From Xylogone sp. PMI_703 (lineage: Eukaryota; Ascomycota; Leotiomycetes): 64,000 bases of DNA. Shown in pieces: positions 4,070-49,152 of the stretch (its first letter is position 1; every line of letters begins with the position of its first letter). The translations under genes were made by a program, and so were the position numbers. The notes beneath the pieces are model-generated. The model did no database searches, was not told the DNA's origin, and worked only from the letters and a program-made list of their open reading frames with translations. The stretch lies in the NCBI GenBank assembly GCA_021399445.1, contig JAJTUQ010000004.1, positions 1,054,001 through 1,118,000 on the forward strand. The letters are read 5' to 3'.

Positions 4070-4491
4070 TTATTCTTTCTTCCATTCATAACTGGCAACA
4101 TTGTCAGTTCCCCGTGCTTTCTTCCATTGATAGCTGGCAACGCTGTCTGTATCGCGTTCTTTCTTCCATTCATAACTAGCAGCAGCATCGGTGTCGCGCT
4201 CCTTCTTCCACTGGTAGCTAGCAACGTTGTCTGTATCACGAGCCTTCTTCCATTGATAACTGGCAACATTGTCCGTATCTCGACCCTTCTTCCATTCATA
4301 ACTGGCAACGTTATCGGTATCCCGGGCTTTCTTCCATTGATAGCTGGCAGCATTATCCGAATCCCTCTTGTCCTGGATGTGATGGTAAGCAGTTGTAAAT
4401 GCCGAGTATTGAGGAGATACTATACGGGAGTTGGGGCAGCAGCAATTGATGCCGCAAATGCAATAACACTAAGAATAACTGATGCCTTCAT
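4070..4491 (-). CDS. Repeat-containing secreted RiPP precursor peptide (dikaritin-like)
   Basis: Two exons, 4426-4491 and 4070-4372, with a 53-bp intron (donor GTATAG, acceptor ATCCAG); the frame closes to 122 residues. Exon 1 encodes a clear signal peptide (MKASVILSVIAFAASIAAA, then PTP). Exon 2 starts DKR and holds seven consecutive 14-residue repeats of the form xR-D-T-D-N-V-A-S-Y-[Q/E]-W-K-K. Four copies carry YQW and three carry YEW; x is Ala, Gly or Glu. Each unit is bounded by Lys-Lys, with Lys-Arg before the first, the sites expected for Kex2-type cleavage in the Golgi. Precursors of ustiloxin, phomopsin and asperipin have this same layout: signal peptide, repeated core and dibasic linkers beside UstYa genes. 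It is divergent from two UstYa genes 571 bp away, which fits. The core sequence matches no RiPP I know; the final product and its activity are unknown. Confidence 0.88.
4073..4372 (-). repeat. Seven tandem 42-bp coding repeats of the RiPP precursor
   Basis: The repeats keep the reading frame exactly, and differences fall mostly at third codon positions or at the Gln/Glu, Asn/Ser/Ala and Ala/Gly/Glu positions. That pattern suggests selection on the peptide and not mere slippage. The first unit has Ser for Thr and Ala for Val. The last unit has Gly for the conserved Asp and ends in Glu-stop. Confidence 0.95.
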
Positions 4492-5062
4492 CTTTATTAA
4501 TCGATGGTGAAATTGGCTTGAATATATTCCTATCACACTATATCGATGAAGCTTGGGAGAGAAAATCCAAAAGTAACATCTCCAACTGTCTTTTTAAATA
4601 TATTCCCTTGATTCAGTATCTACTAACCCCGCTATTCAAAAACCAGAATTTGTCAACTGTCAGCAAAATAGTTTGAATTTTAGTAGATACACTTTGCAAT
4701 ATACAGAAGGTGGCTAGACTTCAGCTTCGATCACATTCTTCACTCTGTGCATCTACCAACCTTAGAATGCAAATGTGGAAGGTCGAGTAGTACAAAAAGC
4801 TGAAAATTAACATCGGAGGTCTTAGTTGCTACAAATGGAAGGTAACATTACTTGGCATTGTGGGTTGTAGGTGTGAACTGTAGATTAGGAAACAAGAGAA
4901 CTAATGCAGTAGTGCAAACCGTCACGTATGATGTAGTGCCTTTACTGGTCCATGTATTTTATGATTGTCTAATCTCTGATGAATGATCCTATTTCATTGT
5001 CCCTTGAAAATAGCATTCGAAGTATCATATCTTTGATCAAAGCTAATTGCAGTTGACATAGG
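4492..5062. promoter_or_regulatory. Divergent intergenic region shared by the RiPP precursor and UstYa gene 1
   Basis: 571 bp between two head-to-head start codons. It is AT-rich and has no ORF worth reporting. It probably holds both promoters and could co-regulate precursor and oxidase. No regulator-binding site can be named with confidence. Confidence 0.5.
4593..4602 (-). promoter_or_regulatory. Possible TATA box of the RiPP precursor
   Basis: On the minus strand the bases read TATATTTAAA, about 100 bp upstream of the precursor start codon. The placement is reasonable for a fungal TATA element, but AT-rich matches are common here. Confidence 0.3.
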
Positions 5063-5958
5063 ATGACAAAAGAGAATGAAGACGTTCTCCAGGAGGAATT
5101 GAGCCCATTTCTGGGCTCCCTGCCATATCCCAGAGAGAAGGTTCCAGTTCACCGGAGGCTATCAGCGCTTACATACTGCCTTATCACATTACTCGGCATC
5201 TCTGTCACCTGCAATGTCTTGACGTATTACTATATACACACCATATCTTATCTAGACAGCACTTGTGTACTGTATACACAGCAGAACCGTATGTTTTCAT
5301 CCATCTCACTTGCTTTCCAATTCCGATTTGCATTCCAACTCACCCCCCTTTCTTAGCTACCCCTATTGATATTCCAATTCATTACACCACTGTCAACTAT
5401 GATGGGACCTTCCTTGCAAACAGAACAACCGATTATCGTCTGCCAGCATCTCCCGCTGTAGATGAGGCATGGGAAGCTCTTGGTACCAAGTCCCAGCCTC
5501 TCCTCCTAAGTCCATCCCAAGCCAGTCGAGCTGGGATTAGCCACGACCACCTCAAAACTCCTTCCGGCGACTTCCCCGTCATATTCGAGTTTAACCACCA
5601 TTTACACTGTCTTAACTTGGTGCGCAAAGCAGCCTTTTTCAACTACGACTATTATTCCGCCCCTGACGCACCTGAGCGACACATAGGCGCAAATGAGGAG
5701 ACCGTCGTAAAACATGTAACTCACTGTATTGACATGCTACGGCAAGTAATCCAGTGCAAACCTGATTTAGGGGTGTTCGGGCAGTATTGGGTAAAAGATC
5801 CACAGCAGGGGATAGATGGGGCATTTGTGGATTTTAATACGGATCACAAGTGTATAGACTGGGAGCCGGTAAGGAAATGGGTGTATGATCATCAGAACCT
5901 GGATAATATCATAGTAGAGTTGAAAGAAGGCGACAAAATTCTGGATATTGCGCCATAG
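5063..5958 (+). CDS. UstYa-family (DUF3328) oxidase-like protein 1
   Basis: Exons 5063-5288 and 5357-5958 (68-bp intron, GTATGT donor, CTTAG acceptor), 275 residues. A single transmembrane segment at about residues 34-57 follows a short cytosolic N-terminus. The luminal part carries both family hallmarks: HHLHC (about 156-160) and HVTHC (about 195-199), plus a late DHKCIDW motif. UstYa proteins install oxidative crosslinks and cyclisation on RiPP core peptides in the secretory pathway (ustiloxin, asperipin). The paired HxxHC motifs are thought to bind the metal or catalytic centre. It lies head-to-head with the repeat precursor and 0.8 kb before a second UstYa gene on the same strand, so it probably acts on that precursor. 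Which residues it couples cannot be read from sequence. Confidence 0.92.
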
Positions 5959-6775
5959 TTACGATAGCTTGGGCACAATAGAAATTAAATCTACTCCTCA
6001 TTTAATGTGACACCCTTCCCTATCGACTAGTTTCCACATCGATGTGTGTGGATATCTGGGGGATTGAACACACTCGCAGGTCCTCATCGACTCTCGGCAT
6101 CTTGCGTAGCTGAGACAAGGGATAGCGTTCAGCTGGTAAGTTTTCAGTAGTTTGTTTAGGCCGAGTAAAGGCGTTTGCATAGTACACCACTTTAGCCAGG
6201 AAAGGAATGTATCCGGTATCGGGAGAAACCCATTGGTTCTAGCCTTGGTATTTCTTATTGAGCTTCCAACTAAAGCTAGAACTAACAACCAAGAATGCTA
6301 TTTACTATTCCTTATCTATCTATTCTTGTTCCACTTAAATCGACGGCCAGAATAGCACCTAGCCCATTTCCTATCTACTTCTACACTCTTCCCCTGGCAG
6401 GATAGCTGATGGGTGCAATCTGTGTATACGTCATGAGACCCAGAGTCGAGGGATAAACAATTTAGCAGATTTCTTGGCGATAATGCCGGTCTACTGTCGA
6501 ATGTATTCTCCGGCATTTGAAGTTTCCAAAATAGTCAATTCTATTATCAACTCCCTGAATAGGGATCGTGCACCGCGCTAGCGCTTATACAGATTAAGCA
6601 ACAGCTGCATGCCCAATACTGTCGAGAGCTGGTTACAGCCTGCTTGGTAAGAGTTTTACCATGTTTAGCATTGCTTAGTCTTCTCCCGTTTTACATTGTT
6701 ACCTCTGGCCTACGTTTTCCATGGCTGTTATACTTTGACTTTGCTAGGCACTTTGTCACGTATCCAGACTGCAGC
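5959..6775. other. Spacer between the two UstYa genes
   Basis: 817 bp without a supportable gene. A plus-strand frame from 6644 continues into the second UstYa gene, but the family-like N-terminus starts at 6776, so the extension is treated as leader. An imperfect inverted repeat (ggttctagcc ... aagctagaact) lies near 6235-6285. Confidence 0.5.
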
Positions 6776-7690
6776 ATGGCAAGGTCAAGTTCTAGCTCTG
6801 ATGAAAACCATAATCTGCTGAAATCTGAGATAGAGAATTTGTCTCAGCGGCAAAATGGAAGTAGGAAGTCTGGACTTACGTTGATGCACTTTCTCGTCGT
6901 AGCCCTGTTCAGCTCGGCGATTTCAATTGCAGCAAGTTTGATTGTATTACAAACTCTCCGGCCGAAGGCAGAACCAAGTAACCCTAAGGAGTTACTTCCT
7001 GGGTTCGATATTCCTCCTCGTAAGTTGGAGTGACATACTTTCTAGAACGGTTGTAGACTAAAAGTTCCAGTTGGATCTTTGGAGAAAGCGTTCATGCCTG
7101 AGCGAGTATTTGAAGATCCTCGCTCAGATAAAGGCTACGAGGCATGGATGAATCTCTTCCCAAGTAAGACCCCTGCATTCTTGTTTAGATGTTTCGAATT
7201 TCTAACATACACACGTATAGTGGGGAAGGGTTACATATCAGTAGATAAAATGATCAGTGAACATTCAGTACCCGATTTCGTCCAAAAACTGAGCACAGAT
7301 GGTTCCGGAAGATTTTGCATAGCAGCTTTCCACCAACTACATTGCCTGGTATAATACTGCATTGCATATTCCCATAATACTATCCATGTCACAGCTAATA
7401 ACGTCCGTTAGTATCTTCTTCAAGGAGACCTTTTTGAAGCCTTAGAAGGGAATATTACCAGCCCTCGATCGCACACGCTTCATTGTTTAGACTATCTCAG
7501 AGAAAGTATCCTCTGTGCAGCTGACTCTACTTTAGAGCCATTTAGATCTCCATTTGACAGCATGGCGCATCGGACAGGTATTGATGGTTATGGTACTCCA
7601 CATCAGTGTCGAGATTTTAACAAACTTCACGCTTTTGCTGAACGATATCGATATAACGATGAGAAGGACTTTGAGCGATTCGAAGGCTAA
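6776..7690 (+). CDS. UstYa-family (DUF3328) oxidase-like protein 2
   Basis: Four exons: 6776-7019, 7065-7163, 7221-7348 and 7412-7690; introns are 45, 57 and 63 bp, all GT-AG, and the frame closes to 249 residues. The N-terminus is Ser-rich and polar, followed by one transmembrane segment (about 35-58). After it come the family pattern MNLFPMGKGYISV, then FHQLHC (HxxHC at 152-156), SHTLHC (HxxHC at 178-182) and a final PHQCRDF motif. The start at 6776 gives the usual short cytosolic tail; an in-frame ATG at 6644 would add an odd hydrophobic extension. It differs strongly from the first UstYa protein, so it is not a recent duplicate. UstYa enzymes often work in pairs on one precursor, which this arrangement suggests. 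Confidence 0.9.
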
Positions 7691-8120: not shown

Positions 8121-8873
8121 TCATCTAAATATCCTCGTACCCCTCCCAGACTTGAGGAGAGGCCGAACATAGCTATCAACGTACTCACGAGATATACCTT
8201 GCTCTATGGCATTTGCAGGCCCTACTTCCATCCTATGGATATACTCATCCCAAGGTGTTCCATCCTTAATATATCTTGGACTGATATAAACGAGCGCCAT
8301 GATTGATTCAGCTTTAGCCTCTGCTTCCACGACTTGTGTATCTGTTGGCTGCTCCACTTCTTGATAGCTACTTGCTTGTCCATCTGCAAGTGTATTCACT
8401 GTCATGCCATCTAACTTAGGTTCAGGCCGATCAACAGTTGACCGATGCGCATTTAGTTCTTTATCCAGCTGCTGTTGGGCTTTTTGCTCGCTAAAGTCTA
8501 GGATATCAACGACCGTTATGCCTCCTAAGCCTCGTTTTGCAGACCAAAATTCCACTTCCTGAAGGTGCTTCTCATAGGCCGTCGGAACCCCTTCGCTACG
8601 GTCCAAACTCCTCTCATCGCTGGGTGACAAACGGTAACAGAGACCATCGACAAAAGAGCCTGGGTCCTCTGATGGGACTACATTCGCATATCCACGCTCG
8701 TTAATCTGGAATCTATAATTATGAAGTCGCCCGCGGCCAACAAAGACACTTGAGGGACAGCGTGCAGCCATCTGGCCAAATGCGAGGTTACTGCCATATG
8801 CGAAGTAAATCGTTTCTGGCTGTGCCGATGAATGGGGACTTGGCGTCTCAGAGACCAAAGTTTGATGGTACAT
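8121..8873 (-). CDS. Gamma-glutamylcyclotransferase-like (AIG2/GGCT fold) protein
   Basis: Single exon, 250 residues from the first ATG at 8873. The GGCT signature YFAYGSNL lies near the N-terminus, followed by GLCYRLS and then LDRSEGV, whose Glu corresponds to the catalytic acid of GGCT enzymes. An insert rich in Gln, Glu and Thr (about residues 155-195) separates the core from the C-terminal ISPRYIKDGTPWDEYIHRM part. GGCT enzymes release 5-oxoproline from gamma-glutamyl peptides or amines in the cytosol; exact substrate specificity varies and cannot be assigned. It is convergent with the UstYa pair, so membership in the RiPP cluster is possible but not shown. Confidence 0.85.
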   Translation of the reverse strand: MYHQTLVSETPSPHSSAQPETIYFAYGSNLAFGQMAARCPSSVFVGRGRLHNYRFQINERGYANVVPSEDPGSFVDGLCYRLSPSDERSLDRSEGVPTAYEKHLQEVEFWSAKRGLGGITVVDILDFSEQKAQQQLDKELNAHRSTVDRPEPKLDGMTVNTLADGQASSYQEVEQPTDTQVVEAEAKAESIMALVYISPRYIKDGTPWDEYIHRMEVGPANAIEQGISREYVDSYVRPLLKSGRGTRIFR

Positions 8874-10783
8874 CTTTAATAGATCCGTAATCGCTAGTGG
8901 CAAGCTGAGACTTGAAGGCTAGGTGATGCATTTTTTTATTGCGGAAAGCCAGGCAGATTAGGCAACCACGAGCTATAGTACAAGATATGCAGCTCTGCGC
9001 CAGGCGCTTTTCTCAGTATACACCCAGAGACTACAGCATCGAATCATATGGAATCGTCGTTTTGCTGGTGAATGCCTCAGAAATTTTGCAGTGACGCGAT
9101 GGTGGACAATACGGTCACGAAAGCTCTTACAGGAATAACCACGGCGGTTAACCAAGCTAGCTATCTGCTAGTCCGACCAATCACTGATAATGGGCTTCTG
9201 GGCCATATAGCCCTAACAGCTGAATCATTCTATCATTAATTCACTACACCTAGACACTTATGTACGGAATGCTTAAATTTATCGATAATATGATTGATTG
9301 ATTGATTGATTGACTACTGGTTGTCACCGTTCTTTGCAAACAAACGAAAGCCGCTCAGCCAATAGAAGCTTAGATTTAGCCCTGTGTGCGGGAATGGTAA
9401 TTTGCATCAGTGGAATCACTAGATGAGAAGACAACCTACTCTATTATTAATATGGTCTATCTAAGGGAAATTTCAGGGCTCTTACATCAAATCTTTTTCA
9501 CGCTCAGCGATAAATTCTCTCCTCTAGGCGCTATGCCAACAGTATATCTCGATATAACTTGTGCTATTATTTCCAATAATATTCAAATTATTCAAATAGC
9601 TATTCGAGTAATCTAGATATTCTCCAAACGCTATATAAGACTTCTACCTCAATCTTTTCATGAATTTCATGATCGCTAAGTAATGATCCGTACGTAATAT
9701 ATTTCAGTCTTATTTTAATATACATTTCAGTACTGAAAATTTCTGATCCAACAAGGCTGCGACAAGATATTTGTAAACTATCAGTGTCTAGAAGCTCCGA
9801 GAAGCAATGCTCAGGAGTGGAAAAGTACCCTTTGCTTCCGAGATCACGATATGCTTGTAGTTGTTTGGTACGCAATCTAGAAAGGATAAACAAAGGCGTC
9901 AATAATGGAGATTGTGTCCACCATCTTAGCTACAGGCATTTCGTTCACTAGGTAAAAGTTATAACTATTACTGGGGAATGAACAGTTGTATCTAGAGGAT
10001 CAAAAGTTTCAAATATCCACTAGCAGCGCAGTCTTGGTGGTCAACCGTAGAGTGTTGGCATGTAATATTGGGAGAGTCGGCTACCGAGACCTATAAATGG
10101 CTCTTCGAAGCGCGCCTTGGGAACCTGAAGATATAGAGCTAAGGAATACTTTCAGTCATCAAGACAGCCCGTTACCTATCATTACTATACAAGTTTAACG
10201 GATGCACTTCGAAGGAGAGGCGGTACTTTTGCCCCTATCCGAGTATCGGGCAATGCCCACCGTAGCACAATACTTTATTTGCACCGGAACTGTAACTGGC
10301 AAAATCATATTAATAGTATTTCTACCAGCACCTACTTTCATGGAAGCAGTTCAGTTAAGGAGCGACCCCTTGAATTTCTTCTCGCATCTACCACCGCCTA
10401 GGTCTATGAGGCAAAATTTTACATAGGGGCAACAGCCATTGAAATCTTATTTTCCTAGCAAAGGGAAAGCATGGTAGTCTTTCTGTCCCAGTAGATAGCC
10501 TGAAGATGATGTGCTGGATTCAATGATCCCTATACATTTCGGTGGTAAAAAGCTTTTGATGCATTAAATCGATTACGGACAGGTGTCGAATAGGCGGCGA
10601 ATCACTCGCGAGTAGTCGTCGAAACCCAAATCTTTCTTTCAGACGTGCAACAAAATTCTTGGCCAGCCTCTATGAGGAAGCTGATTGGATAGAAGTATGC
10701 AGGTCTTATCACGTGCGAAAACCGAAGATTTCCTAGCGTCATTTTATTCATCAGCTAAATTATGCATCCCGAGTTCTATCCGA
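8874..10783. other. Gene-free stretch
   Basis: About 1.9 kb. Contains a (TGAT)n microsatellite near 9300 and otherwise only short frames without motifs or splice partners. Confidence 0.5.
9291..9313 (+). repeat. TGAT microsatellite
   Basis: Five full TGAT units plus TGA in a row, in intergenic DNA. Confidence 0.9.
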
Positions 10784-14353: not shown

Positions 14354-15574
14354 ATGGCCGAAGTAGGGATTATGCCGCCTCCGGCGGGAGTCACGCCTGA
14401 TTTTCACAGCTGGACGTATGTCCAACACTCTGTTATTGGCGTTTTCGTATCGACCTTTGTGATCGCGACAATAGCCTTGGTGCTTCGACTTTATACGGCC
14501 ATCATTCTTGTGCGAAAGGTGGATTGGGATATCCGTAGGTGGCCCCGCGTTGAAGATATACTGAGATACTCAGATATCACACCCATCTTTCTCTGATATT
14601 GAACTATCGTCCATGCTAACACTTCAGTAGCATTCATTATCCTCGCCTGGGGAACGTCCCTAACATTCTTCATTGCCATGGTCATAGCCATGCCTTCCGG
14701 CTTTGGCAGGCACTTATGGGACGTCACGCCAACACAATTGGTAGGATACTTCAATCTGCTCTTAGTCCTGGCCCTCACCTACATCTGGCCGCCAACCCTG
14801 ACAAAGCTGGCCATGTTGGCGCTCTATGTCCGCATCAACCCTTCCAAGCTCTTCCAGGCTGGAGTCTGGCTCACAGCAATCGGCATCATCGCGTATACCG
14901 TTGTCTTCACGGCTTTATTCTCGGGGCCCTGCAATCCACAGTCTACCGGTAGCGGTGCTTGTCTCAATAATATTGCCATCGCTCAGGCTATTCTGAATAT
15001 TGTGTCTGATGCGGCAATAATTGTTCTCCCTATTCCTACAATCCACAGTTTGAAGATGCCCTTGAAGCAGAGGTTGGCCATTGGTATCTTGATGGGTCTG
15101 GGATCTGCGTAAGTCAAGTCTCTTTAATAACGTATGAATCTATTAATGAGTTGCTAACCTGTATCTCTCAGCGTCGTCATCGCATCCATCGCGCGACTCG
15201 CATACGTGAAGGCCATGGTTACGAACCCCGATGTCACCTGGACCCAAGCATCCGCCGCCATCCTCTCTTCTCTCGAACTCAATCTCGGCATCATTTGCAA
15301 CAGTGTATCGCGCATGAAGCCCTTCGTTCGGAAGCACTTCCCCAGCTGGGCCAGTGGGTTCAACAGCTCCGGCGCGCCAGACTACTCCAGGAGCAAGAGA
15401 AACAATGGTAGCTATCCACTGGGGAGCGTTGAGCGAGGAGAGCGATTTGGTGGAGTGCAGCGCAAGGACACCGCTAATATCCATGTTACGGCCGAATATC
15501 AAGTAGATTACGAAGGGAAGTCCGTGAGGAATGCAACTGGCAGCACGGAGAGTATTCTTAGGCCCGATGTATGA
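14354..15574 (+). CDS. Fungal rhodopsin-domain integral membrane protein (PTH11-related type)
   Basis: Exons 14354-14534, 14628-15108 and 15172-15574; 354 residues. Seven hydrophobic segments are seen, the first at VIGVFVSTFVIATIALVLRL, followed by a Trp-Asp turn, four mid-protein helices, and a conserved extracellular Cys pair around SGPCNPQSTGSGAC. A polar tail of about 80 residues follows the last helix. This is the layout of the Fung_rhodopsin family (PF20684), plasma-membrane proteins of mostly unknown ligand related to the PTH11 surface receptors. Intron 1 ends in a NAGNAG acceptor (CAGTAG), so two products differing by one residue are possible; I used the first AG. It is convergent with the kinase-like gene, 203 bp away. 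Confidence 0.88.
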
Positions 15575-18188: not shown

Positions 18189-20586
18189 TCAACTGTTTTG
18201 CTCCAAGCTCTGTTTCCGCAATTCAACCTCACGCCAAAACATTCCACCAATGACCTCAGACATCCGTTTATTCCATAATAAACCTATCAGTCGACCCTCT
18301 ACTTCCTTCCAGTGATTCAATTCCATTGCAGCCATAACTCTGGCCACGCGTGCTGCAAACCAAACGTTTTCAGCATCGCCCAATGAAATAACTGAGCCCA
18401 TGCAGAGTGCCCACAATTGAATACCCAACGAAGCATTATCTACATTGTTGATGATGAAAAACTTCTCCCCGATGTATTGATCCATCAGTTTCAATTTAAG
18501 GCTTCTTAGAACAGCAAATGTAGGCAAAAAGTGGCGCAGAGCATAGTTAATGTAAATTAGGCCTGCAATACTGAATACTTGCATCATACTTTTATCTTGC
18601 AGCTTCACAGGCCGTGACTCATGCTGCTTCAAGAAGTGGAGCAAACGACGTTCTATAGAAGTACGCATCTGGCTAAAGTTCATCATTTCCATCGTTGTGG
18701 GAGCGTAACCCCTACTGAAATAGTTCACAATAAGTGTAATTCTGCGTAGATCGTGAAATATGGATACCAGTTCGCCGGAAAAACTGATAGGTAGTGCCCT
18801 TTTACAGCTATCTAAGCTCGTAGGGTAGGATAATTCGTCGGAAATTGAGTCTACATTTAGGATGATAGGATTTGTTGTCACGACGCATTTCGTTGGTGTA
18901 AAACGAGGCGTAGAATCAGTTATCGTTGATGAAAGAGAATCCTGCCTGTGCTTCGTTAGATTCCAGCAGCATTAGGTAATCAATCTCAGAGATTATATAC
19001 CAAGAAATAAGCATATGTAGGACGCTTTGCATTCCCAATACTCTTAAACCTCCTTTAGAGGTGACTATCCTCTCCACAGCATTCATATGAAGAGCTAAGT
19101 CGGTTACGTTTCCATTTATATTCTGTTAGATCTACCCCGTCAGTATAAGCTAAAAGACAAACATTGTTAGAGCTAATACGGTGATTATTACCTCGTAGGC
19201 CGCTAAGCACGTCACGGCTGCAATAGTCGCGTCGTTTACTTCATGAACTGTAGTAGAATTCAAACTTGCATTGATAAGTCTGATTGTCTCACCTCGATGT
19301 AAGAGTGTTACTGGGTTGTTTTTGTTCCCGTGCAAGAAGTCATCATGTGCAGATGCAAGAAAGAGCGTAGCGTGGAAAAGAACGAGATTCCTGATGGCCT
19401 CCCCAACAAATATTATCCTAAGAGGATTTTGAGTCTGACCAGTGCCGACTGGTAACAGCGCTGGTGCTAGGACAGTTGTAACTTTGCCTTCCACATCAGC
19501 CATGTCTAGCTAAGCTACTACAGAACGTATGTAGGATATAACAGACGGGGAATTAATCTCAAAAACAACACAAGTAACAAAAATGATGATATTATCTGAC
19601 GATACCAAAGTCTCTGCACTTACAGTGATAGAAGAGCTGATCAGCTTGAACGAAATTAGGGCCAACATATGTTTTGAAAGGGTCCCCGGCACCAGTTCCA
19701 GGTAAGAACATTAGACTTTGAGAATAGCCTGGATTATTCTGGATCATCTATAGTCAGCTTGAGGGTACCAGTTTTGCTATGATGACTCACCTCAAGAGGG
19801 TAGCGGCGAGGAGAATCGCCGGCTCTACTCGCGTTTAATATATCAGGGGGTCCACAGATATACTCCTTTGCGCTTTGCGAAGATGAAGCTCCTATTAACA
19901 TGATTTCCCGGCATCAGCGACTCTATAATCGAGATTTGAGTTCTTTGAATGCACCATATAGTTAATAATAGCATACCAGTTTTTGAAGCAGCTTCGGGTT
20001 CATTTTCGTCATGTGCATAGTTTCGACTTTGATCACGTTGAAGATTATTACGGATCATGCCTGACTTTTTGCCTTTAGCTTGGCTAAACTTCGTTATGTC
20101 TACCAACTTCCATTGTCTCAGAGGCATATGTTTAGCAGGTACTTTCGGCGTCATGTAATCCACGATTGTGCTACGGCTCCCTTCATCAGAGCCTATATCA
20201 GGTTCTCCCTGAAGAGCATTCACTGTAAAGTATTATGTCAGTGACCGCATCATTATTTGCGCCCGGATTAGTGATGCTTAATAGATACCTGAAGTTTCTC
20301 CATTTGACTTTGTGATTGAGAACTCTCTATGAGCGTCATTGGTGTCGGGTCTCGAACAGACACCACTCGCGATCAAGGCCTGTCGATGTCCTCAGATCAA
20401 GTCAGCTCTCGAATAACTGCATAACTTAGCTTCTCTTAACTCACGATATGCTCGCTGTGCCAATCTATTTTGAATTTTTCGTCGAGCTAATGGAGAAGAG
20501 AGGCCTGACCAGTTATCCCGACTTGTATCAAGAGTACTGTTGTTAAACGAAGAAAACCCCGAAGTCGTATCCTCAGAGTCGTCCAT
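18189..20586 (-). CDS. Transcription factor: bZIP-like basic region plus Fungal_trans_2 domain
   Basis: Eight exons: 20445-20586, 20289-20390, 19977-20222, 19791-19891, 19624-19747, 19192-19505, 19001-19122 and 18189-18945; introns 43-118 bp; 635 residues. The N-terminus has RRKIQNRLAQRAYR, matching the AP-1-type basic region (N-x7-R), but no clear leucine heptads follow. From about residue 200 the sequence fits the fungal-specific regulator domain PF11951: DPF-x-YVGPNF, NPL-x-FVGEAIRNLVLFHATL, LLHRGETIRLIN, AAYENINGN, and GGLRVLGMQSVLHMLISW with DSTPRF. That domain normally follows a Zn2Cys6 cluster, which is absent. The first intron uses a GAG acceptor and is the least certain junction. It is probably a nuclear regulator; targets are unknown. 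Confidence 0.82.
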
Positions 20587-26515: not shown

Positions 26516-29500
26516 TCATATGGATTCTCTAACGCCAAGGTCTAGGAATTCATCTTTAATATAACACAAAGCCTCCCGAGTCCACAGGGTGGCTTCATGT
26601 TCTAATCCGAGAAACTCTTCTTGTCCCGCTAATGCCTTTGTTGTCCATTCCAAAGCATTATTATACTGTCGAAGTTGTCGAAAAACAATACCTACCCAAT
26701 ACATTGATGATAAGGTTTGTCTATGGATTGATCCTAAGAGTTTTTCTCGTCCAGTTAAAGCTTTCATATGACACTCTAAAGCTTTGTCATATTGTCCAAG
26801 TTGCTTGAAATTGCACCCCATATCATAAAGCGATACTAAAGTATCCTCATGGTTTAATCCTAATAATTTTTCTTGTCTAGATAAATCTTTTTGGCTGTAT
26901 TCTAAAGCTTCATCGTACTGTTTGAGGCGATAAAATGTATGGCCCATCCAATAATATGATAGTAGAGTATCCTTATGGTCTATTCCTAATACTCTTTCTT
27001 CCCCAATCAAAGCTTTTGTGTGATATTCCAAAGCTTTACCGTATAGTTCGAGGCTGTAAAATGTACGGCCCATCCGATAATATGATCGTAGAGTATCCTT
27101 ATGGTCTAGTCCTAACACTTTTTCCTGTCCAGTCAAAGCTTTTGTGTGATATTCTAAAGCTTTATCGTATTGCTCAAGGTTGTAAAAAGTGCAACTTGTC
27201 CAATGAAAAGAGAGCAAAGTATCTTCATGGTCTGGCCCTAGTAGCCTTTCGCGACCAGAGAGAGCATCCCTGAACGACTTCAGCGCTAGCTCGTATTGAT
27301 GAAGCCGCGAGTAGCTTATTCCAATTAAATGAAGTATAAGAAACCTGTTTCGCCCTTCCTTCTTCTTAGTCTTTTGAAGAGCCGCCAAGTAAATCGCAAG
27401 AGCCTGATCATGTTTGCCGAGATTTTCATAGAAGTTATCAATAACAAGGAGTACATATATCGGAATAATCGCCGCCCTTTGTGCTATTATGCGAAATAGA
27501 AGTTTCAAAGGATCAGTAAGTCGTTCTGCCTTGTTGAGATAGAAAACTAATTTGAGCAGTAGATCGACTTGAAGCCGCAGTGGCAGTGATGCCTCTTTCT
27601 GAAGCATTTCTGCCATCGTCAAGAAGTCCGGTACTGGCTCATTAATGCTCTGAGAAACACGGAACTTTTCGACTTGCACATTGATTGGTGAATCTATATC
27701 TTTTAAAATCTCCAGATAGCATTGTAACTGTTCAGTAAGGAAATCGTCTTGTCCATATTCAAGTCTTCGTTCTTCAAGGCAGTCAACTAAATGGGCTAGT
27801 ATGGTGAGTAAAGAAAAATTTCTTGAGTGTGGATTTTTATCTAACCAAGACCAAAATTTCTCGAGCTCTTCAAGATGAGAATGTAGGGATTCGTCTTCAA
27901 CCATATACATGAGCAAGGATTCAACCCAAGGTAACAACCTGTTCGAGTCCAGGAACTTGTCAATCTTCTCGGTGAGAGGTGCACATGATAGACTAGAGTG
28001 GTATATATGAAAGATCATAGATGTGGATGAGTAGGACAAAAACGGGTGGGACGTAGCAGGCTCAGTAAGAGACTTCCAATCGTGTAAAGGGGAGCCGTAT
28101 TCCCTAATACTGTTGTATTCTATGCAGGCAGCTCCAACCCACTGATGCGCATCTTGGGTGACGACCCTAAACATTGATGCTTTGCCACATTTTGACCATT
28201 GATCTTTAGGTCTTACTAGGAATTCCTCGAGCGAAAAGTGAACTAGTCGTACATGATCGTCTGCAATAGTAATAAAATCACCACAGATCTCCAGGATTCT
28301 ATGGCCAAGCGACAGGATGAGATGGTCATCAAATGAACCCTTCTTATTTTTGGAATTGACCATTGCATCTGCAGCAAGTAAATGTTGCAACTCGCCCAAA
28401 CCCAAAGGATGTCGTGAGACTATTGCAACCTGTAGAACCTTTTTTGCAAACTCTAGTTCCGCTTTATTTACCTTGCGTACAAGCCTTAAGAGTAGAGCTT
28501 TATAAGCTTCCTGGAGGCCGTTTGGCATATCGCGTAATTGCTTCCTCGCATTATTCTTTGTAAGTGACCTCCTGAGGCTCCCTAGCATGAGATGAACCCA
28601 TAGAAAACTCCCATCTGACTGCCGTCGAAGCGACTCGCGCACAGTATCTTGTATTTCTGGGAGACTAAGTATGTTGGAGCTGGCTATTTTTGTATCAATT
28701 ATCCGATCGATATCTTTTCCCGTCAAGTCTGGCGTCAATCTGAACTTATGATGGATAATATCGACCGCTTCAAATGCATGTGATCGCCCTAGCAAGATGA
28801 ATCGAAAATTGCTGTGAGCGCGGAGGAAGTTTGAGATCTCTGAGAGCAGTGTTGTGGCTGCCTTGCTGTCCTCGTCTTTCTCTTCATCCATGCTTTCGTC
28901 AATGCCATCGATGATACAGTGGACTAGTTCTTTGACGAGTACAGCCATTTCGTCAAAGGCTGCCCACAAATCAGATCTAACCGGCTGGCCGTTCGGCATT
29001 AATTTATGAATTATGTTAATGGCTGCAGCATTGGAGATACTTCCTAGTAATTGCCATATTAATGAACGGATCATTTTGTCCAGATAATGCAGGCTGCTGT
29101 CCATGGCCGAAAATGCAAAGAATAGGACACGTATGTTTTGATTCCACATATGATCAGCCATAGAGGAGGCCAGAACGCTTTTGCCACATCCATGAGATCC
29201 GTGAATACAGATAATTTGGTCAGCCGCTTTCAAGGCTGGCTGATGGAACCATTTAAAAAAGACTGTGTCACTGTTGGTCCAGATCCAGTCACAGGTTTGT
29301 GGCAACTTCTTCTGGAACTGCCTCTGTTGGGTTGCTCGACTGTTGGGTGGCTTCAGCCATGATTCGCACCTCAGCCTTAGATCTTCTTGCTGCTTAATTC
29401 GAATTTCTGCAAATATTAGCACGTAAGTACATATGCTCACAGCCTTGATTACCTTTTGTATTTTCATCTATTCGCGAGACTATGTAAAGAGTCAATTCTG

Positions 29501-39521: not shown

Positions 39522-41534
39522 TTAAACAAGCACCACTCTTCTCCGACGTCCTTCTGTGGGAAATCGAGCATCTAAGCCTACAGCATTGCGAGCCTCTAAT
39601 TCGGCATATATTTCTTCAAAATCTTCGTCCTCATCAAGCCAGTTCTCATAATCCAGATCTTGGCTGAAATGCCCAAGCCGCTTAAAAGATCCATCCGAAA
39701 GGCGACTTACCAGCAGTCCGTGCCACTGAGGATAATCATTGGGTCCCATCCCATTATGTGCAGCACAGCCAAGTAGCAAGCACCACATCTTACTAAGATC
39801 TTCATCTGTAGCGGACGTGCCGTCGGAATCGATGCATGTATCATCCAGCCATGAGGGATCAGCGTATCTTGCGTGGACTAAGAAAGCCTCTACGGTGAGA
39901 CGACCAGCAGTAACCCGGCCAAGCGGGTTTTCTGGATGTGCGGGCGTAACTTGACAGGATATAATCTTCACACCTCTTGGTGTCTCTGAGCGATTGAATG
40001 AGGCGACATTCCACACTGGTCCATAAACAGATGCCCAAGACCAGCTGGGGGCTTCAAGGCTAGACCACGTATAGTCCGTTAGACCAGCTCGAATTGCCCC
40101 CTTATCTAATCTCCACCCTAGTTGGCCTTCCATATTATGCTCCCACAAACCACCGTAATACCTGCTGTTCCACATTGGTGCTGCTATTGCTGCAATTCCA
40201 GCGAGCGCTGGGAGACGATCATCTGGGTCGGTGAGACTTCGAAGAGTGTAAGTCTTGACAAGTTGATCCCATAACATCTCTTGAAAAACACCCTCTCTGA
40301 GCTCTTTGGCAACCACAGCTAAGTCCTCGCTTGGGTGTGATCCAATTTGGATACCATCAAAGGCCAAACGATCGAAAAGTGCGTTGCACTGCCAGATCAC
40401 TCCTCCTTCGGTATAAATCAAGGCTCGACGTGCAAGGCTGATTTCCTGGCAGGCCCATCCACGTTGGTTCAGCGGCTCGTCCTCAGAACGCTCCGTGGGA
40501 ACTGGAATGATACCTAGATACCCCTCACAAGTTGCGGAACATCGTGCAGGCAACATGATTGGTCTGGAGAAATAATCCCCTATATCCGCGAGAAAACCGT
40601 CGTGTACGGTTTTGGCCCTTGAAGCAGCTATTACTACGGTCGCTCGATTGTATATATTTGCCATCTGAGAAATCTCCCGAGCAACATCATCTTCATCACC
40701 TTGCATTATGCATAGTGCGTCAATCCATAGATATCGAATCCTGAGCTGCATACAAACATGAACAGCATCTTGCAATGTCTGAGGCAGGGTTTCAGTTGCA
40801 ATACCTCTCTTCTTCGATGAAATATTGGCTCGGGTAGTCTTAACTTCCTGGTCACCACCCCAGCAATAGCTAAGTGCTGCATACGTGCCAGTCTCTCCCT
40901 TCTCTGTCTCGTAGAGACACATCATCTCGATATCGATCACTCGTGAGGGTAATAACCCAATCTTGCTACGAGAACAAGACTCGTGCTGCGTAATGCACTC
41001 GGTAAACGCTTGCTCTATTCTCCTTAAGGCGTCCTCGTTTGTGACAGAGATACGCACAGGCCGGCTTGGTATCAATTCGGATATTGGGCTATCTGTTACG
41101 GCATTCGTGGTGAATAAACGATCTCTAGGCTTATAGGATTTTAGCTTACCAGGAGTTGTAAAATAATAGAAACTACGCAGGTTACGTAGTGATTGGTCAT
41201 CCTCGTCATCAACTGTCCCCCACTCGATCTCACTTCGCAGGCCGCTGGCATGAGGTGGACAGATCTCGAAGAATGAACGATTGTTCATATTGAGACCTTG
41301 CCAGTATCTCTCAGATAATGACGGATCCGGGTTATCGTTATGGGGTTGCCATCGCCCGTGATACAGATCTGAGCACAGAGCGCATCCAAGTTGTGCATGC
41401 CCTTTTAGCTCTGATATTGTGTAATGCTCAATGCGATGCAATGCCTCTGGATTCTTTTCAATCAGGCTGCGCAAATTGTTCGGGTCTAAAAATATTCCAG
41501 CGCAACGAGTACAAAGCATTGATGGCCCTTGCAT
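39522..41534 (-). CDS. HET-domain (heterokaryon incompatibility) protein 1
   Basis: Single exon, 670 residues. The N-terminus has a paired-Cys segment (LCTRCAGIF and GCALCSDLY). The HET domain lies at about residues 215-370 with its usual blocks: YAALSYCWGG, LPQTLQDAVHVCMQL, YLWIDALCIMQGDEDD, and IYNRATVVIAAS. A second conserved block follows (NQRGWACQEISLARRALIY). HET domains are cell-death effectors in fungal allorecognition, cytosolic, often with fast-evolving C-termini; the C-terminal half here (GYTWSSLEAPSWSWASVYG type) is the standard HET extension. It is intact with no frameshift. Confidence 0.93.
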   Translation of the reverse strand: MQGPSMLCTRCAGIFLDPNNLRSLIEKNPEALHRIEHYTISELKGHAQLGCALCSDLYHGRWQPHNDNPDPSLSERYWQGLNMNNRSFFEICPPHASGLRSEIEWGTVDDEDDQSLRNLRSFYYFTTPGKLKSYKPRDRLFTTNAVTDSPISELIPSRPVRISVTNEDALRRIEQAFTECITQHESCSRSKIGLLPSRVIDIEMMCLYETEKGETGTYAALSYCWGGDQEVKTTRANISSKKRGIATETLPQTLQDAVHVCMQLRIRYLWIDALCIMQGDEDDVAREISQMANIYNRATVVIAASRAKTVHDGFLADIGDYFSRPIMLPARCSATCEGYLGIIPVPTERSEDEPLNQRGWACQEISLARRALIYTEGGVIWQCNALFDRLAFDGIQIGSHPSEDLAVVAKELREGVFQEMLWDQLVKTYTLRSLTDPDDRLPALAGIAAIAAPMWNSRYYGGLWEHNMEGQLGWRLDKGAIRAGLTDYTWSSLEAPSWSWASVYGPVWNVASFNRSETPRGVKIISCQVTPAHPENPLGRVTAGRLTVEAFLVHARYADPSWLDDTCIDSDGTSATDEDLSKMWCLLLGCAAHNGMGPNDYPQWHGLLVSRLSDGSFKRLGHFSQDLDYENWLDEDEDFEEIYAELEARNAVGLDARFPTEGRRRRVVLV

Positions 41535-42232
41535 ATCTAGGCGATCAGCAAGAGCAATTCTACTACTATTTTCTTCGATTCTGTGAAGGAAAGTGACAGG
41601 CTATATCGAAGACGTGGGCGTGTATCTTCTTTGGCGAGGATAAAATTAGATGTGTTTCGGCGTTCGGTGAAGTTGGGGATGATTCTGGCTAACCCCGGAA
41701 GAATGGTAGGGGTGAGGACTGGCTTCCAATTTTAGCTAACATTGAAGAACCAGATGGGTCATCCGCTACCCGTAGCCTGACCAACTGTAGTACAAGCGGA
41801 ATACTCGAGATCAACTTAGGCTGTTATACAAAAGGCAGTAAGGAAGTATTATTACTATTGTCGTGCCTATAGCTTTATCTCTTTGTAACTTCAATCTACT
41901 TCCTGGGGTGGGCTGTAAGCAATTCAGAATGCTCCGAAGTTTGATAGATCTACTAGTAAGCTTCATTTTATATATGTCTAATCTCAATTAGGGCAGGATC
42001 TTTTGTTTTGCTCTTCACTGGCATTTGTAACTGACTGTCATTTAAATCGTTTATTAAACCCTATTAAACAAACCAGAATTCATTTTTATTTCTCAATCTG
42101 ATGATATACAAAAGAATAAGTGGTTCAAAGGTATCAAGAACTTATCAAGTGCTTGAAGGTTTTTCCCAAGTTCCCCTATGTTTATATTAGTTTGGTACTC
42201 TTCTACGTTTACCGATTAGGTTATTGAAATAC
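41535..42232. other. Gene-free stretch
   Basis: About 700 bp, promoter side of the HET gene. No ORF or repeat of note. Confidence 0.5.
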
Positions 42233-46742: not shown

Positions 46743-49152
46743 CTATTCAACCACGATTTTGTATTGCTTGATGGGCGGCAGGTCTAGCTTCTTCCCTGTC
46801 TTGTCTGTAGCGTGTCGAGGAATCTCTATTGGCTCCTTCTGCCATTCTTCAGCTGCATCAAACCCTACGCATACCTGCCAGAAACATTTTGCATCACTCT
46901 CATCAACTGTGAACGTCCCGAGGCGACGAAACCGTGGCGTTTTTTCAACGCACTGTTCAAGAACGAGACCTTTTATGGCGCGTTTTGGCACCGCTGTGAA
47001 CGCCGCTGGAGTAGTCCAATCTGTAGATTCTAAGACAGGAACGAGCCAGCGTTTGCGTGCTGTACGAAAGTCTGAGGCAATATCATAATGGAACTTAAGA
47101 TGACAAGCATACTCCTCGGACCCTTGGACCAGAGATACAAGCACAGATGAAAGTGTACTTCCATAGTAGATATTATAAGCCTTGCTTTCCCCTTGGTCCA
47201 TTCTGTATGAAGTGCTGCTCAACTGAAGAGGCCAGTCTTCGCCAGGCAAAGGGGTGTCCACTACGGTAGTGTTCATGTTATCAGGATCAAAATCGGGGTC
47301 ATCGACTAATACCATTCTATTAGCAGCAAATTCGTACTTGCACTCTTTCCACTGTTCTATCTCCGAGAAAGTGGCATAAAAACAAGGCACGATGCAACAC
47401 AAAATTTCGAGGACTTCACGGGTGGAGACTTGGGAATCACTAAGTGTCCCAAGCGTTGCCTTGTTCAATATTTTGCAGTAATAACTATCCCTTGGGCTCT
47501 TTGAATGAACTTGATCTTTGATGGATAACTCATTTTTAAAGATGTCGAGTGATTCCCATTGCGGTAAGGGGTCCACCTCTCCCACAACTGCTGCCCAAGA
47601 CCAAGACGGGGCAACCTGCTCTTTTGGTCGACAAGTGGTATTGTGATTGAGAACGTGCCATGTAAGCTGGCTCTCCATATCACGACTAAAGAGGCCTGCA
47701 GCGTACTGGCAGTCGAATATTTCCTTTATCTTCATTGCCACACCGTAGATAGCCACGAGCTTATCTGAATCGCGGGTCAACTTCGTCGACGAATAATTCC
47801 GTACAATTGGTCTCCATACATCGTGAATCCCAAGTCCGGTATATCCAGCTTCTAGTCCCTGCCGGAAGAGATCCTTTAGAGGCGACCTCATTTTCACTTC
47901 CTTGATCAGATCACCTGTGCCGTATGGGAACCGTTCGCACGCAGTGAGATCATTACATTCCCAGGCCAACTGATCCTGATCAAAGTGTAGCACGCGTGGT
48001 GACAGGAGGCGTTCTTGTACAACCCATGCTCGCTGGTTTAGGGGCATCTTCTTGAATCTGTTCCACCACAGGTTGATATCTGTGAGATAGGCGCGATTCG
48101 TCTCATCATCGTCCGCAGGATTCTCCCATAGAACAGGGATGGGTCGTATTATGGCTGGGTCTCGGTTCCGGAAGCATCCACCTCGTGAGTCAAATGAGCT
48201 TGTTGCAGCAATGTTACAAAATGAGTTGCCATAAACATGTTGCATAACTATTGATTCTCGCGCCCAATCATCCTTATCGTCCTGTATGATACATAGACAG
48301 TCGATCCAGATATACTGTACCATCAGCTGCCGTGCAATTTCTACTGCGTCCTGGAACGTCTGCCCCAGTGAATCAAGATCAATCCCCTCTTTATGGGTTT
48401 TAATGTTTTGGGTCGTGAGTTTAACAGGGACATGTAGCCCCCAACAGTGACTCAGCGTAACGTATACGGAGTCATCGATAATTTCGTGTTTCTCCCGTAA
48501 ATGGATTGTCCTGGAGAACCCGGATACATCTAAAAGCCGGGTTGGCTTGTACGCTCCGTTGACATGCGCTTGACGACAAGACTTATGATTCATCCAACAT
48601 TCCCAGATCCATTTACGAGCAAGTCGTAAGCTAGACGGAGAGGCTGTACTCATCTCCGTTGTATTTTGACTGATCAAGTGAGAAATATCTTCGCAGCGTC
48701 AGTAGGTATCACCGTGTGCTTTCCAATCTTACAATACCTTTTGCTGAATAGACTGCGAACTGAAGCGGCGTATTAGATCCGGGCTGAGGGAACGGCATAT
48801 GAAAATCAGGAATCACAGTCAACCAGATATAGATTTTCCCATTAAATACTCGCAGCCAATCCTCAGTTAGACTGCTTGCACTAGTTAGAAACATCCTACA
48901 CGCCTGGCAGCCATTCCTTGCGCCTTCCTCAAATTCAGTGACATCTCGGTTGTCTCCAACTCCAGGGTTAAATTGAACCGCTTCGATAAGCGCAGCACAG
49001 TGCTTGCAAAGCTTCCCTGGGATGAATGGTAGATTTGAAGTGGCGCTATCCGCCGAGTCCCGACCCTGTAAAGAAGATTCATATTTGTTGAGAATTGCGC
49101 GAGTCGATGCCGTGAGAACTGGAAAGTCCAAGTCTTTTTCGACCGGATCCAT
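46743..49152 (-). CDS. HET-domain protein 2
   Basis: Exons 48738-49152 and 46743-48688 (49-bp intron), 786 residues. The N-terminal exon carries a Cys-rich segment (LCKHCAALIEA, GCQACRMFL). The HET domain follows: YVTLSHCWG, LGQTFQDAVEIARQL, YIWIDCLCIIQDDKDDWARE, VYGNSFCNIAATSS, then NQRAWVVQERLLSPRVLHF. The C-terminal part (APSWSWAAVVGEV onward) is the usual extension. The order of blocks equals that of the HET gene 7.3 kb away, but sequences differ widely, so they are not recent duplicates. Expected role: cell-death effector or partner in vegetative incompatibility. Confidence 0.93.

What the first reader, a model, noticed from the sequence alone, without database searches (positions are those of the whole stretch)
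4070..7690. Compact RiPP cluster: seven-repeat secreted precursor divergent from two UstYa genes
Seen: a two-exon gene with signal peptide and seven in-frame 14-residue repeats bounded by Lys-Lys (Lys-Arg before the first), head-to-head with two genes carrying paired HxxHC motifs and one transmembrane helix. Known: dikaritin RiPPs (ustiloxin, phomopsin, asperipin) are made from Kex2-cut repeat precursors by UstYa (DUF3328) enzymes. Inferred: this is a minimal new cluster producing a Tyr- and Trp-containing modified peptide. The core is unlike any product I know, and no P450, tyrosinase or methyltransferase lies beside it, so two UstYa proteins might suffice.
Basis: partly seen in the sequence, partly recalled or inferred. 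Interest (0 to 1): 0.92.

Follow-up and report, generated by a model that had tools for sequence, protein, structure and literature searches.

The report
Fungal repeat-peptide cluster with two UstYa
A fungus of the genus Xylogone carries a small three-gene cluster that very probably makes short, chemically modified peptides cut from a repeated precursor protein; it is a new member of a known kind, and a related enzyme pair occurs in Trichoderma.

Summary
At 4491-4070 (-) lies a two-exon gene (53-bp intron, 122 aa) with a hydrophobic N-terminus, a Lys-Arg site and seven 14-residue repeats. Third codon positions differ about four times more often than first or second positions between repeats, so the frame is under protein-level selection. 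Head-to-head with it is one UstYa gene, followed in tandem by a second; both match Pfam UstYa and carry two HxxHC motifs. The host is Xylogone sp. PMI_703. Both enzymes are annotated there; the precursor was not found in the protein collection. This is the published "Kex2-processed repeat protein plus DUF3328" architecture (dikaritin-like), of which 1,758 precursors were counted in 2020: a new member, not a new kind. Few genes and no tyrosinase are not new either (asperipin-2a has one UstYa homologue). New are the core (invariant ASYxWKK; no printed match found) and the kinship: both enzymes form a clade with Trichoderma, where the pair also seems linked. Whether Trichoderma has the same precursor could not be tested.

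The parts
4426..4491 (-). Precursor gene, exon 1: hydrophobic signal-peptide-like N-terminus MKASVILSVIAFAASIAAAPTP
   Evidence: 11-residue hydropathy up to 2.55; no signal-peptide program was available
4373..4425 (-). 53-bp intron of the precursor gene (GTATAG...ATCCAG), phase 0; holds the early stop codon
   Evidence: sequence only, no transcript
4070..4372 (-). Precursor gene, exon 2: Asp-Lys-Arg, then seven 14-residue repeats D[ST]D[NAS][VA]ASY[QE]W-KK-[AGE]R (last one starts GTD and ends KKE-stop)
5063..5288 (+). UstYa gene 1 (Y1), exon 1, with the membrane helix (residues 35-53 most hydrophobic)
   Evidence: protein 100% identical over 275 aa to NCBI F5884DRAFT_675126 (P0001)
5357..5958 (+). 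UstYa gene 1, exon 2, with HHLHC (residues 156-160) and HVTHC (195-199)
6776..7019 (+). UstYa gene 2 (Y2), exon 1, with the membrane helix
7071..7163 (+). UstYa gene 2, exon 2 (start as in annotated protein P0121)
7221..7348 (+). UstYa gene 2, exon 3, with HQLHC (residues 150-154 of P0121)
7412..7690 (+). UstYa gene 2, exon 4, with HTLHC (residues 176-180 of P0121)
4492..5062 (.). 571-bp shared upstream region between precursor and UstYa gene 1 (possible divergent promoter; inferred)
   Evidence: sequence only

Best explanation
A dikaritin-like RiPP cluster of three genes. The precursor enters the secretory pathway, Kex2 cuts it at Lys-Arg and Lys-Lys (perhaps also after the Arg of K-K-x-R), releasing seven near-identical peptides of about 10-12 residues ending in A-S-Y-[Q/E]-W once the lysines are trimmed. 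Two membrane-anchored UstYa oxidases then oxidise the released or still-linked peptide, most likely at the invariant Tyr and/or Trp, to make a side-chain cross-link or a similar oxidation, and the product is secreted. Shown: gene structures at sequence level, repeats, dibasic sites, both UstYa domains with intact double HxxHC motifs, a Kex2 candidate gene elsewhere in the genome, relatives of both enzymes on the same contigs in Trichoderma. Inferred: splicing, signal peptide, Kex2 cutting, that these two enzymes act on this precursor, which residues are modified, and secretion of the product.
For: Repeat gene under protein-level selection. Pfam UstYa 3e-43 and 6.4e-25. Alignment of UstYa 1 with 70 of its 165 database hits: both HxxHC motifs in 71 of 71 rows; UstYa 2 with 57 of its 101 hits: first motif in 57 of 58 rows, second in 58 of 58. 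The only ORF of the 64-kb window with three or more similar dibasic-bounded pieces is the one beside the UstYa genes. The genome gave one match to the proprotein-convertase P domain, directly beside subtilase matches (C19:7268746-7269979), fitting one Kex2 gene. Literature: DUF3328 genes are enriched next to such precursors, with the maximum at the next gene (PMC7329392 section 7); UstYa proteins are described as dicopper oxidases that make a Tyr-ether cross-link in asperipin-2a (passage in PMC12186524). Tyr and Trp are invariant in 7 of 7 repeats.
Against: No transcript, peptide or product is known. The precursor was not found in the 5.8-billion-protein set (436 candidates, none at E up to 10), so no orthologue shows the repeats conserved. 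Lys-Lys is usually a weaker Kex2 site than Lys-Arg (recalled). No transporter, peptidase or regulator was recognised beside it in 29 scanned proteins or ORFs of the window; a sub-threshold transcription-factor match lies 10.5 kb away (18189-18971). Of 32 separate places around UstYa matches in this genome (50 overlapping stretches, match plus 1.5 kb either side), 30 showed no repeat precursor, so a UstYa gene alone does not imply one. The AlphaFold models are only moderate (pLDDT 74.9 and 72.5); the UstYa 1 model matched no solved fold, the UstYa 2 model was not searched.
Confidence: 0.78

Rival explanations
1. The repeat gene encodes a secreted linear peptide (a signal or surface-active peptide), processed by Kex2 but not modified; the UstYa pair acts on something else.
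For: 78% of 7,878 repeat precursors had no DUF3328 gene nearby (from the 22%); 30 of 32 places around UstYa matches here show no such precursor within 1.5 kb, so UstYa proteins have other jobs.
Against: Divergent arrangement with 571 bp between the two start codons; DUF3328 genes peak at the position next to precursors in the 2020 survey and Tyr-containing repeats are commoner there; Tyr and Trp are invariant while some neighbouring sites vary. That survey also found Trp no commoner beside DUF3328 genes (20.5% against 24.5%), so Trp is no argument for modification.
Confidence: 0.14
2. The cluster is larger than three genes: the neighbouring gamma-glutamyl-cyclotransferase-like gene (8121-8918, -) or unlinked enzymes take part, as in the larger ustiloxin cluster.
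For: The AIG2/GGACT-like ORF (4.8e-9) lies 430 bp beyond the second UstYa gene; unlinked tyrosinase matches exist in the genome.
Against: I saw no GGACT gene named as a dikaritin enzyme in the passages I read; nothing links it functionally to the three genes; synteny in Trichoderma could not be tested.
Confidence: 0.2
3. The cluster is decaying or silent.
For: The precursor is absent from the protein set searched; one repeat has Gly for the usual first Asp.
Against: All frames are open after splicing, both enzymes keep every HxxHC residue, and the repeats differ mainly at third positions.
Confidence: 0.08

Closest known systems
Asperipin-2a cluster (aprA, aprY, aprR, aprT) of Aspergillus flavus
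   Same: Repeat precursor with a UstYa-family oxidase and no tyrosinase or P450 among its four genes; very small cluster (PMC6514808, passages).
   Different: One UstYa gene rather than two; has a reductase and a transporter; 8-residue repeats with core FYYTGY.
Ustiloxin B and phomopsin clusters (dikaritins)
   Same: Signal peptide, 13-14 residue repeats with dibasic sites, two and five DUF3328 genes, Tyr in the core.
   Different: Those need a tyrosinase, the ustiloxin pathway has several tailoring genes, and the core is Y-x-I-x; here ASYxW and no tyrosinase match within about 2.95 Mb on the contig.
Kex2-processed repeat proteins accompanied by DUF3328 genes (Umemura 2020; Le Marquer 2019)
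   Same: This locus fits the two published criteria for such precursors (signal peptide, repeats with Kex2 sites) and has DUF3328 neighbours.
   Different: Its repeat matches none of the motifs described in the text that I read (di-His types G-3 and G-8, W with P in P-3, Y-x-I-x in G-10); figures and supplementary lists were not readable, so membership in one of the 838 types is open.
Second repeat-precursor/UstYa locus of the same genome (L039, C19:6142914-6146396)
   Same: Signal-like N-terminus with AAAPTP, dibasic-bounded repeats, divergent from a UstYa gene.
   Different: Repeat is NNPKFDYPG[NS]P[DN]EA.., unrelated in sequence; only one UstYa gene seen within the 3.5-kb stretch, and the ORF runs off its end.

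Membership tests
Dikaritin-like / ust-RiPS (broad definition: repeat precursor plus DUF3328 enzyme) | Signal peptide on the precursor | tested here: inconclusive
   Strongly hydrophobic N-terminus after one Lys; no signal-peptide predictor available
Dikaritin-like / ust-RiPS (broad definition: repeat precursor plus DUF3328 enzyme) | Highly repeated core sequences separated by Kex2-type dibasic sites | tested here: met
   Seven 14-residue repeats, KR before the first and KK after each
Dikaritin-like / ust-RiPS (broad definition: repeat precursor plus DUF3328 enzyme) | DUF3328/UstYa gene close by | tested here: met
   Two, 3e-43 and 6.4e-25, starting 571 bp and about 2.3 kb from the precursor start
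Dikaritin-like / ust-RiPS (broad definition: repeat precursor plus DUF3328 enzyme) | Two HxxHC motifs in the UstYa protein (proposed marker, PMC12048977, passages) | tested here: met
   Both proteins
Dikaritin-like / ust-RiPS (broad definition: repeat precursor plus DUF3328 enzyme) | Oxidatively modified, usually cyclised product | not testable with these tools
   Needs mass spectrometry
Dikaritin in the narrow original sense (ustiloxin/phomopsin-like) | Tyrosinase gene in the cluster | tested here: not met
   13 tyrosinase matches in the genome, none in the window; nearest on the same contig at C20:4015808, about 2.95 Mb away
Dikaritin in the narrow original sense (ustiloxin/phomopsin-like) | S41 peptidase gene in the cluster | tested here: not met
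   Five matches in the genome, none on contig C20
Dikaritin in the narrow original sense (ustiloxin/phomopsin-like) | Y-x-I-x core | tested here: not met
   Repeat holds ASY[QE]W in 7 of 7 copies

The most novel reading that the evidence does not exclude
A two-enzyme fungal RiPP system in which a pair of divergent UstYa copper oxidases (28% identical over 115 aligned columns) is sufficient to make a Tyr-Trp (or other Trp) cross-linked peptide, a linkage that I did not see reported for this enzyme family in the passages I read; the enzyme pair was passed between Hypocreales such as Trichoderma and Xylogone, genera that both include parasites of cultivated Ganoderma, and its product serves contests between fungi.
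Probability: 0.12. Interest if true: 0.7.

Novelty: new member of a known kind. Interest (0 to 1): 0.42.

Why it matters
A 2022 review counted only five reported dikaritins although 22% of repeat precursors sit beside UstYa genes (passages). This cluster is small enough (about 3.6 kb) to test which of two UstYa enzymes does what, without tyrosinase or tailoring genes. Because relatives of both enzymes lie on the same contigs in several Trichoderma species, it points to a peptide pathway there that I did not find described, and to a precursor that gene callers may have missed, as seems to have happened in Xylogone.

Tried and rejected
Looked for precursor homologues in the large protein set: 436 candidates, none at E up to 10. 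Looked for the UstYa 1 family in viral and prokaryotic contigs in the hope of stray fungal DNA: none. Looked for a solved structure by sequence and, for UstYa 1 only, by fold: none convincing. Considered the Trichoderma RiPPs of PMC7099791: the one described in the passages I read (109 aa, T. reesei cluster 55) is different, with KK found only once; its other five candidates I did not see. Considered type G-3 of PMC7329392 (which lists Trichoderma and Scytalidium): its repeats have di-histidine, so rejected. Considered a pseudogene or chance ORF: rejected by the codon-position pattern and the shuffles. First exon-2 start of UstYa gene 2 (7065) rejected for 7071. Horizontal transfer: both trees place Xylogone in a supported clade with Hypocreales, but the inner order for UstYa 1 is unresolved and the tool flags the Xylogone branch of UstYa 2 as long, so transfer and loss elsewhere are not separated. 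A bacterial-type promoter scan of the shared upstream region found no more than its shuffles and says nothing about a fungus. Pfam scans covered 29 translated proteins or ORFs of the window, not every exon; NCBIfam gave nothing for three.

Papers: passages only for PMC9233826, PMC6339444, PMC6514808, PMC12048977, PMC10620716, PMC12541464, PMC10512285, PMC10459490, PMC10416523, PMC12186524; outline and passages of PMC7099791; passages, section 6 part 1 of 2, sections 7 and 9 of PMC7329392. Two UstYa enzymology papers (PMC12143957, PMC12145154) were not held.
Full report
What is there. The minus-strand gene at 4491-4070 starts with a hydrophobic N-terminus, is interrupted by a 53-bp GT-AG intron (4425-4373) and then encodes Asp-Lys-Arg followed by seven repeats of exactly 14 residues. 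Tandem Repeats Finder finds the array as a 42-bp period, 6.9 copies. In the repeat, Asp at position 3, Ala-Ser-Tyr (6-8), Trp (10) and Lys-Lys (11-12) are the same in all seven copies; the linker is K-K-[AGE]-R in all six linkers, while positions 4, 5 and 9 vary between Asn/Ala/Ser, Val/Ala and Gln/Glu. Between the seven copies, codon positions 1 and 2 differ in about 10% of comparisons and position 3 in 39%, which is what a translated, constrained repeat shows. Twenty shuffled versions of the window gave no ORF with three such pieces. Against this, the intron rests on sequence alone: 25 donor/acceptor pairs in all keep the repeat frame, and one other frame of the array is also open.

The enzymes. 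UstYa 1 (5063-5288, 5357-5958) equals the annotated protein of Xylogone sp. PMI_703 at 100% over 275 residues (P0001). UstYa 2 (6776-7019, 7071-7163, 7221-7348, 7412-7690) is annotated as P0121, 247 aa. They are distant from each other (28% over 115 columns). Both have the Pfam UstYa domain and both HxxHC motifs; these are kept in 71 of 71 aligned rows for UstYa 1 (itself plus 70 of its 165 hits) and, for UstYa 2 (itself plus 57 of its 101 hits), in 57 of 58 rows for the first motif and 58 of 58 for the second. The AlphaFold models (pLDDT 74.9 and 72.5) have one long N-terminal helix and place each HxxHC inside a helix. No solved structure resembles the UstYa 1 model; the UstYa 2 model was not searched.

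Surroundings. To the left is an XPG-type nuclease (1-1630, -), to the right a gamma-glutamyl-cyclotransferase-like ORF (8121-8918, -). In the 5.7 kb after it I recognised no gene, though only one ORF there was scanned; then comes a fungal-rhodopsin-type receptor (14603-15574, +). The genome gave 108 UstYa matches, which I merged into 59 loci. I scanned the 50 overlapping stretches that the tools had fetched around UstYa matches (L001-L020, L025-L054; 32 separate places, 120.6 kb): two places hold a repeat precursor by my criterion, this one and L039. Tyrosinase matches (13) and S41 peptidase matches (5) lie elsewhere. One proprotein-convertase P domain lies beside subtilase matches on C19, a good Kex2 candidate. 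A search of the genome with the precursor gave its own two exons and two weak matches at one place on C22 (E 0.126 and 0.266, about 30% identity), which I did not follow.

Kinship. For UstYa 1 the eleven next hits (P0002-P0012: seven Trichoderma, one Mariannaea, three unnamed metagenome proteins) have 62-75% identity over 72-100% of the query; the next one has 42%. For UstYa 2 the eleven next hits are all Trichoderma: ten with 57-63% over 95-100% of the query and one partial. Four Trichoderma are named in both lists, and in all four the two proteins have the same longest-contig length: T. asperelloides (consecutive tags 005107 and 005108), T. sp. SZMC 28014 (380029 and 380027), T. ceciliae and T. 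chlorosporum. Other Trichoderma appear in one list only, which clustering at 90% identity may explain. No Mariannaea protein is among the UstYa 2 hits. In trees of 35 and 34 chosen rows Xylogone falls in a clade with these at 100/100 (UstYa 1) and 100/99 (UstYa 2); for UstYa 2 it is the sister of the Trichoderma set (92/96), with a branch that the tool flags as long; for UstYa 1 the inner order is unresolved, also in a smaller tree of 15 rows. Xylogone is a leotiomycete, Mariannaea belongs to Hypocreales, as does Trichoderma (recalled). Transfer between the two lines is possible but not shown. Xylogone ganodermophthora and Trichoderma are both named as pathogens of cultivated Ganoderma (PMC10620716, passage); the life style of strain PMI_703 itself is unknown to me.

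How it most likely works. Secretion, Kex2 cutting at the dibasic sites, trimming of the C-terminal lysines, and oxidation by two copper-dependent UstYa proteins at Tyr and/or Trp. The last steps are inferred from the family: UstYa proteins are reported as dicopper enzymes that make a Tyr-ether link in asperipin-2a (PMC12186524, passage), and UstYa homologues can also desaturate, hydroxylate or chlorinate, so the exact modification is open. Because the first repeat begins right after Lys-Arg with Asp, and each later repeat follows K-K-x-R, the mature peptide may start there.

Known or new. The architecture is the published one: 22% of 7,878 Kex2-processed repeat proteins have a DUF3328 gene nearby, on average 1.7 of them, with the maximum at the next gene (PMC7329392). 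Asperipin-2a is made by four genes with one UstYa homologue (PMC6514808). So neither the small size nor the lack of tyrosinase is new. The core was not found in a text search for six repeat words in 5.39 million papers (five papers listed, by title none about such a peptide), but supplementary tables were out of reach. Searches for UstYa with Trichoderma, DUF3328 with Trichoderma and RiPP, and related terms listed, by titles and abstract starts, no description of this cluster. I therefore call it a new member of a known kind, with moderate interest coming from the related enzyme pair in Trichoderma.

Noticed in passing
L039 (G000:C19:6142914-6146396), ORF from 3129 (+), running off the end: A second repeat precursor (signal-like N-terminus, repeats NNPKFDYPG[NS]P[DN]EA.. 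bounded by Lys-Arg or Arg-Arg) divergent from another UstYa gene in the same genome.
   Followed up: partly
G000: C1:8096533-8102896, C19:6466760-6469273, C5:318328-319981: Tyrosinase matches lie within about 2 kb of UstYa matches, suggesting ustiloxin/phomopsin-like clusters elsewhere in this genome.
   Followed up: no
P0134, P0138, P0150, P0153 among relatives of UstYa 2: A sister group of UstYa 2 (41-54% identity for these four) occurs in Cladobotryum mycophilum, Escovopsis weberi and two Trichoderma species, fungi living on other fungi (recalled), together with Oidiodendron and Xylariales. P0150 aligns with Tyr instead of the first His of motif 1.
   Followed up: no
window 26516-29467 (-): A 983-residue NACHT/NPHP3-type ATPase with tetratricopeptide repeats, partly encoded by a 126-bp tandem array; with HET-domain genes at 39522-41600 and 46743-48698 it suggests fungal self/non-self recognition genes nearby.
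   Followed up: no
G000:C22:2805218-2805508 (L023, L024): Two weak, overlapping matches to the precursor on opposite strands (E 0.126 and 0.266); they may be chance.
   Followed up: no
window 9292-9312: A short GATT simple repeat in an AT-rich stretch (sequence; GC 0.388).
   Followed up: no
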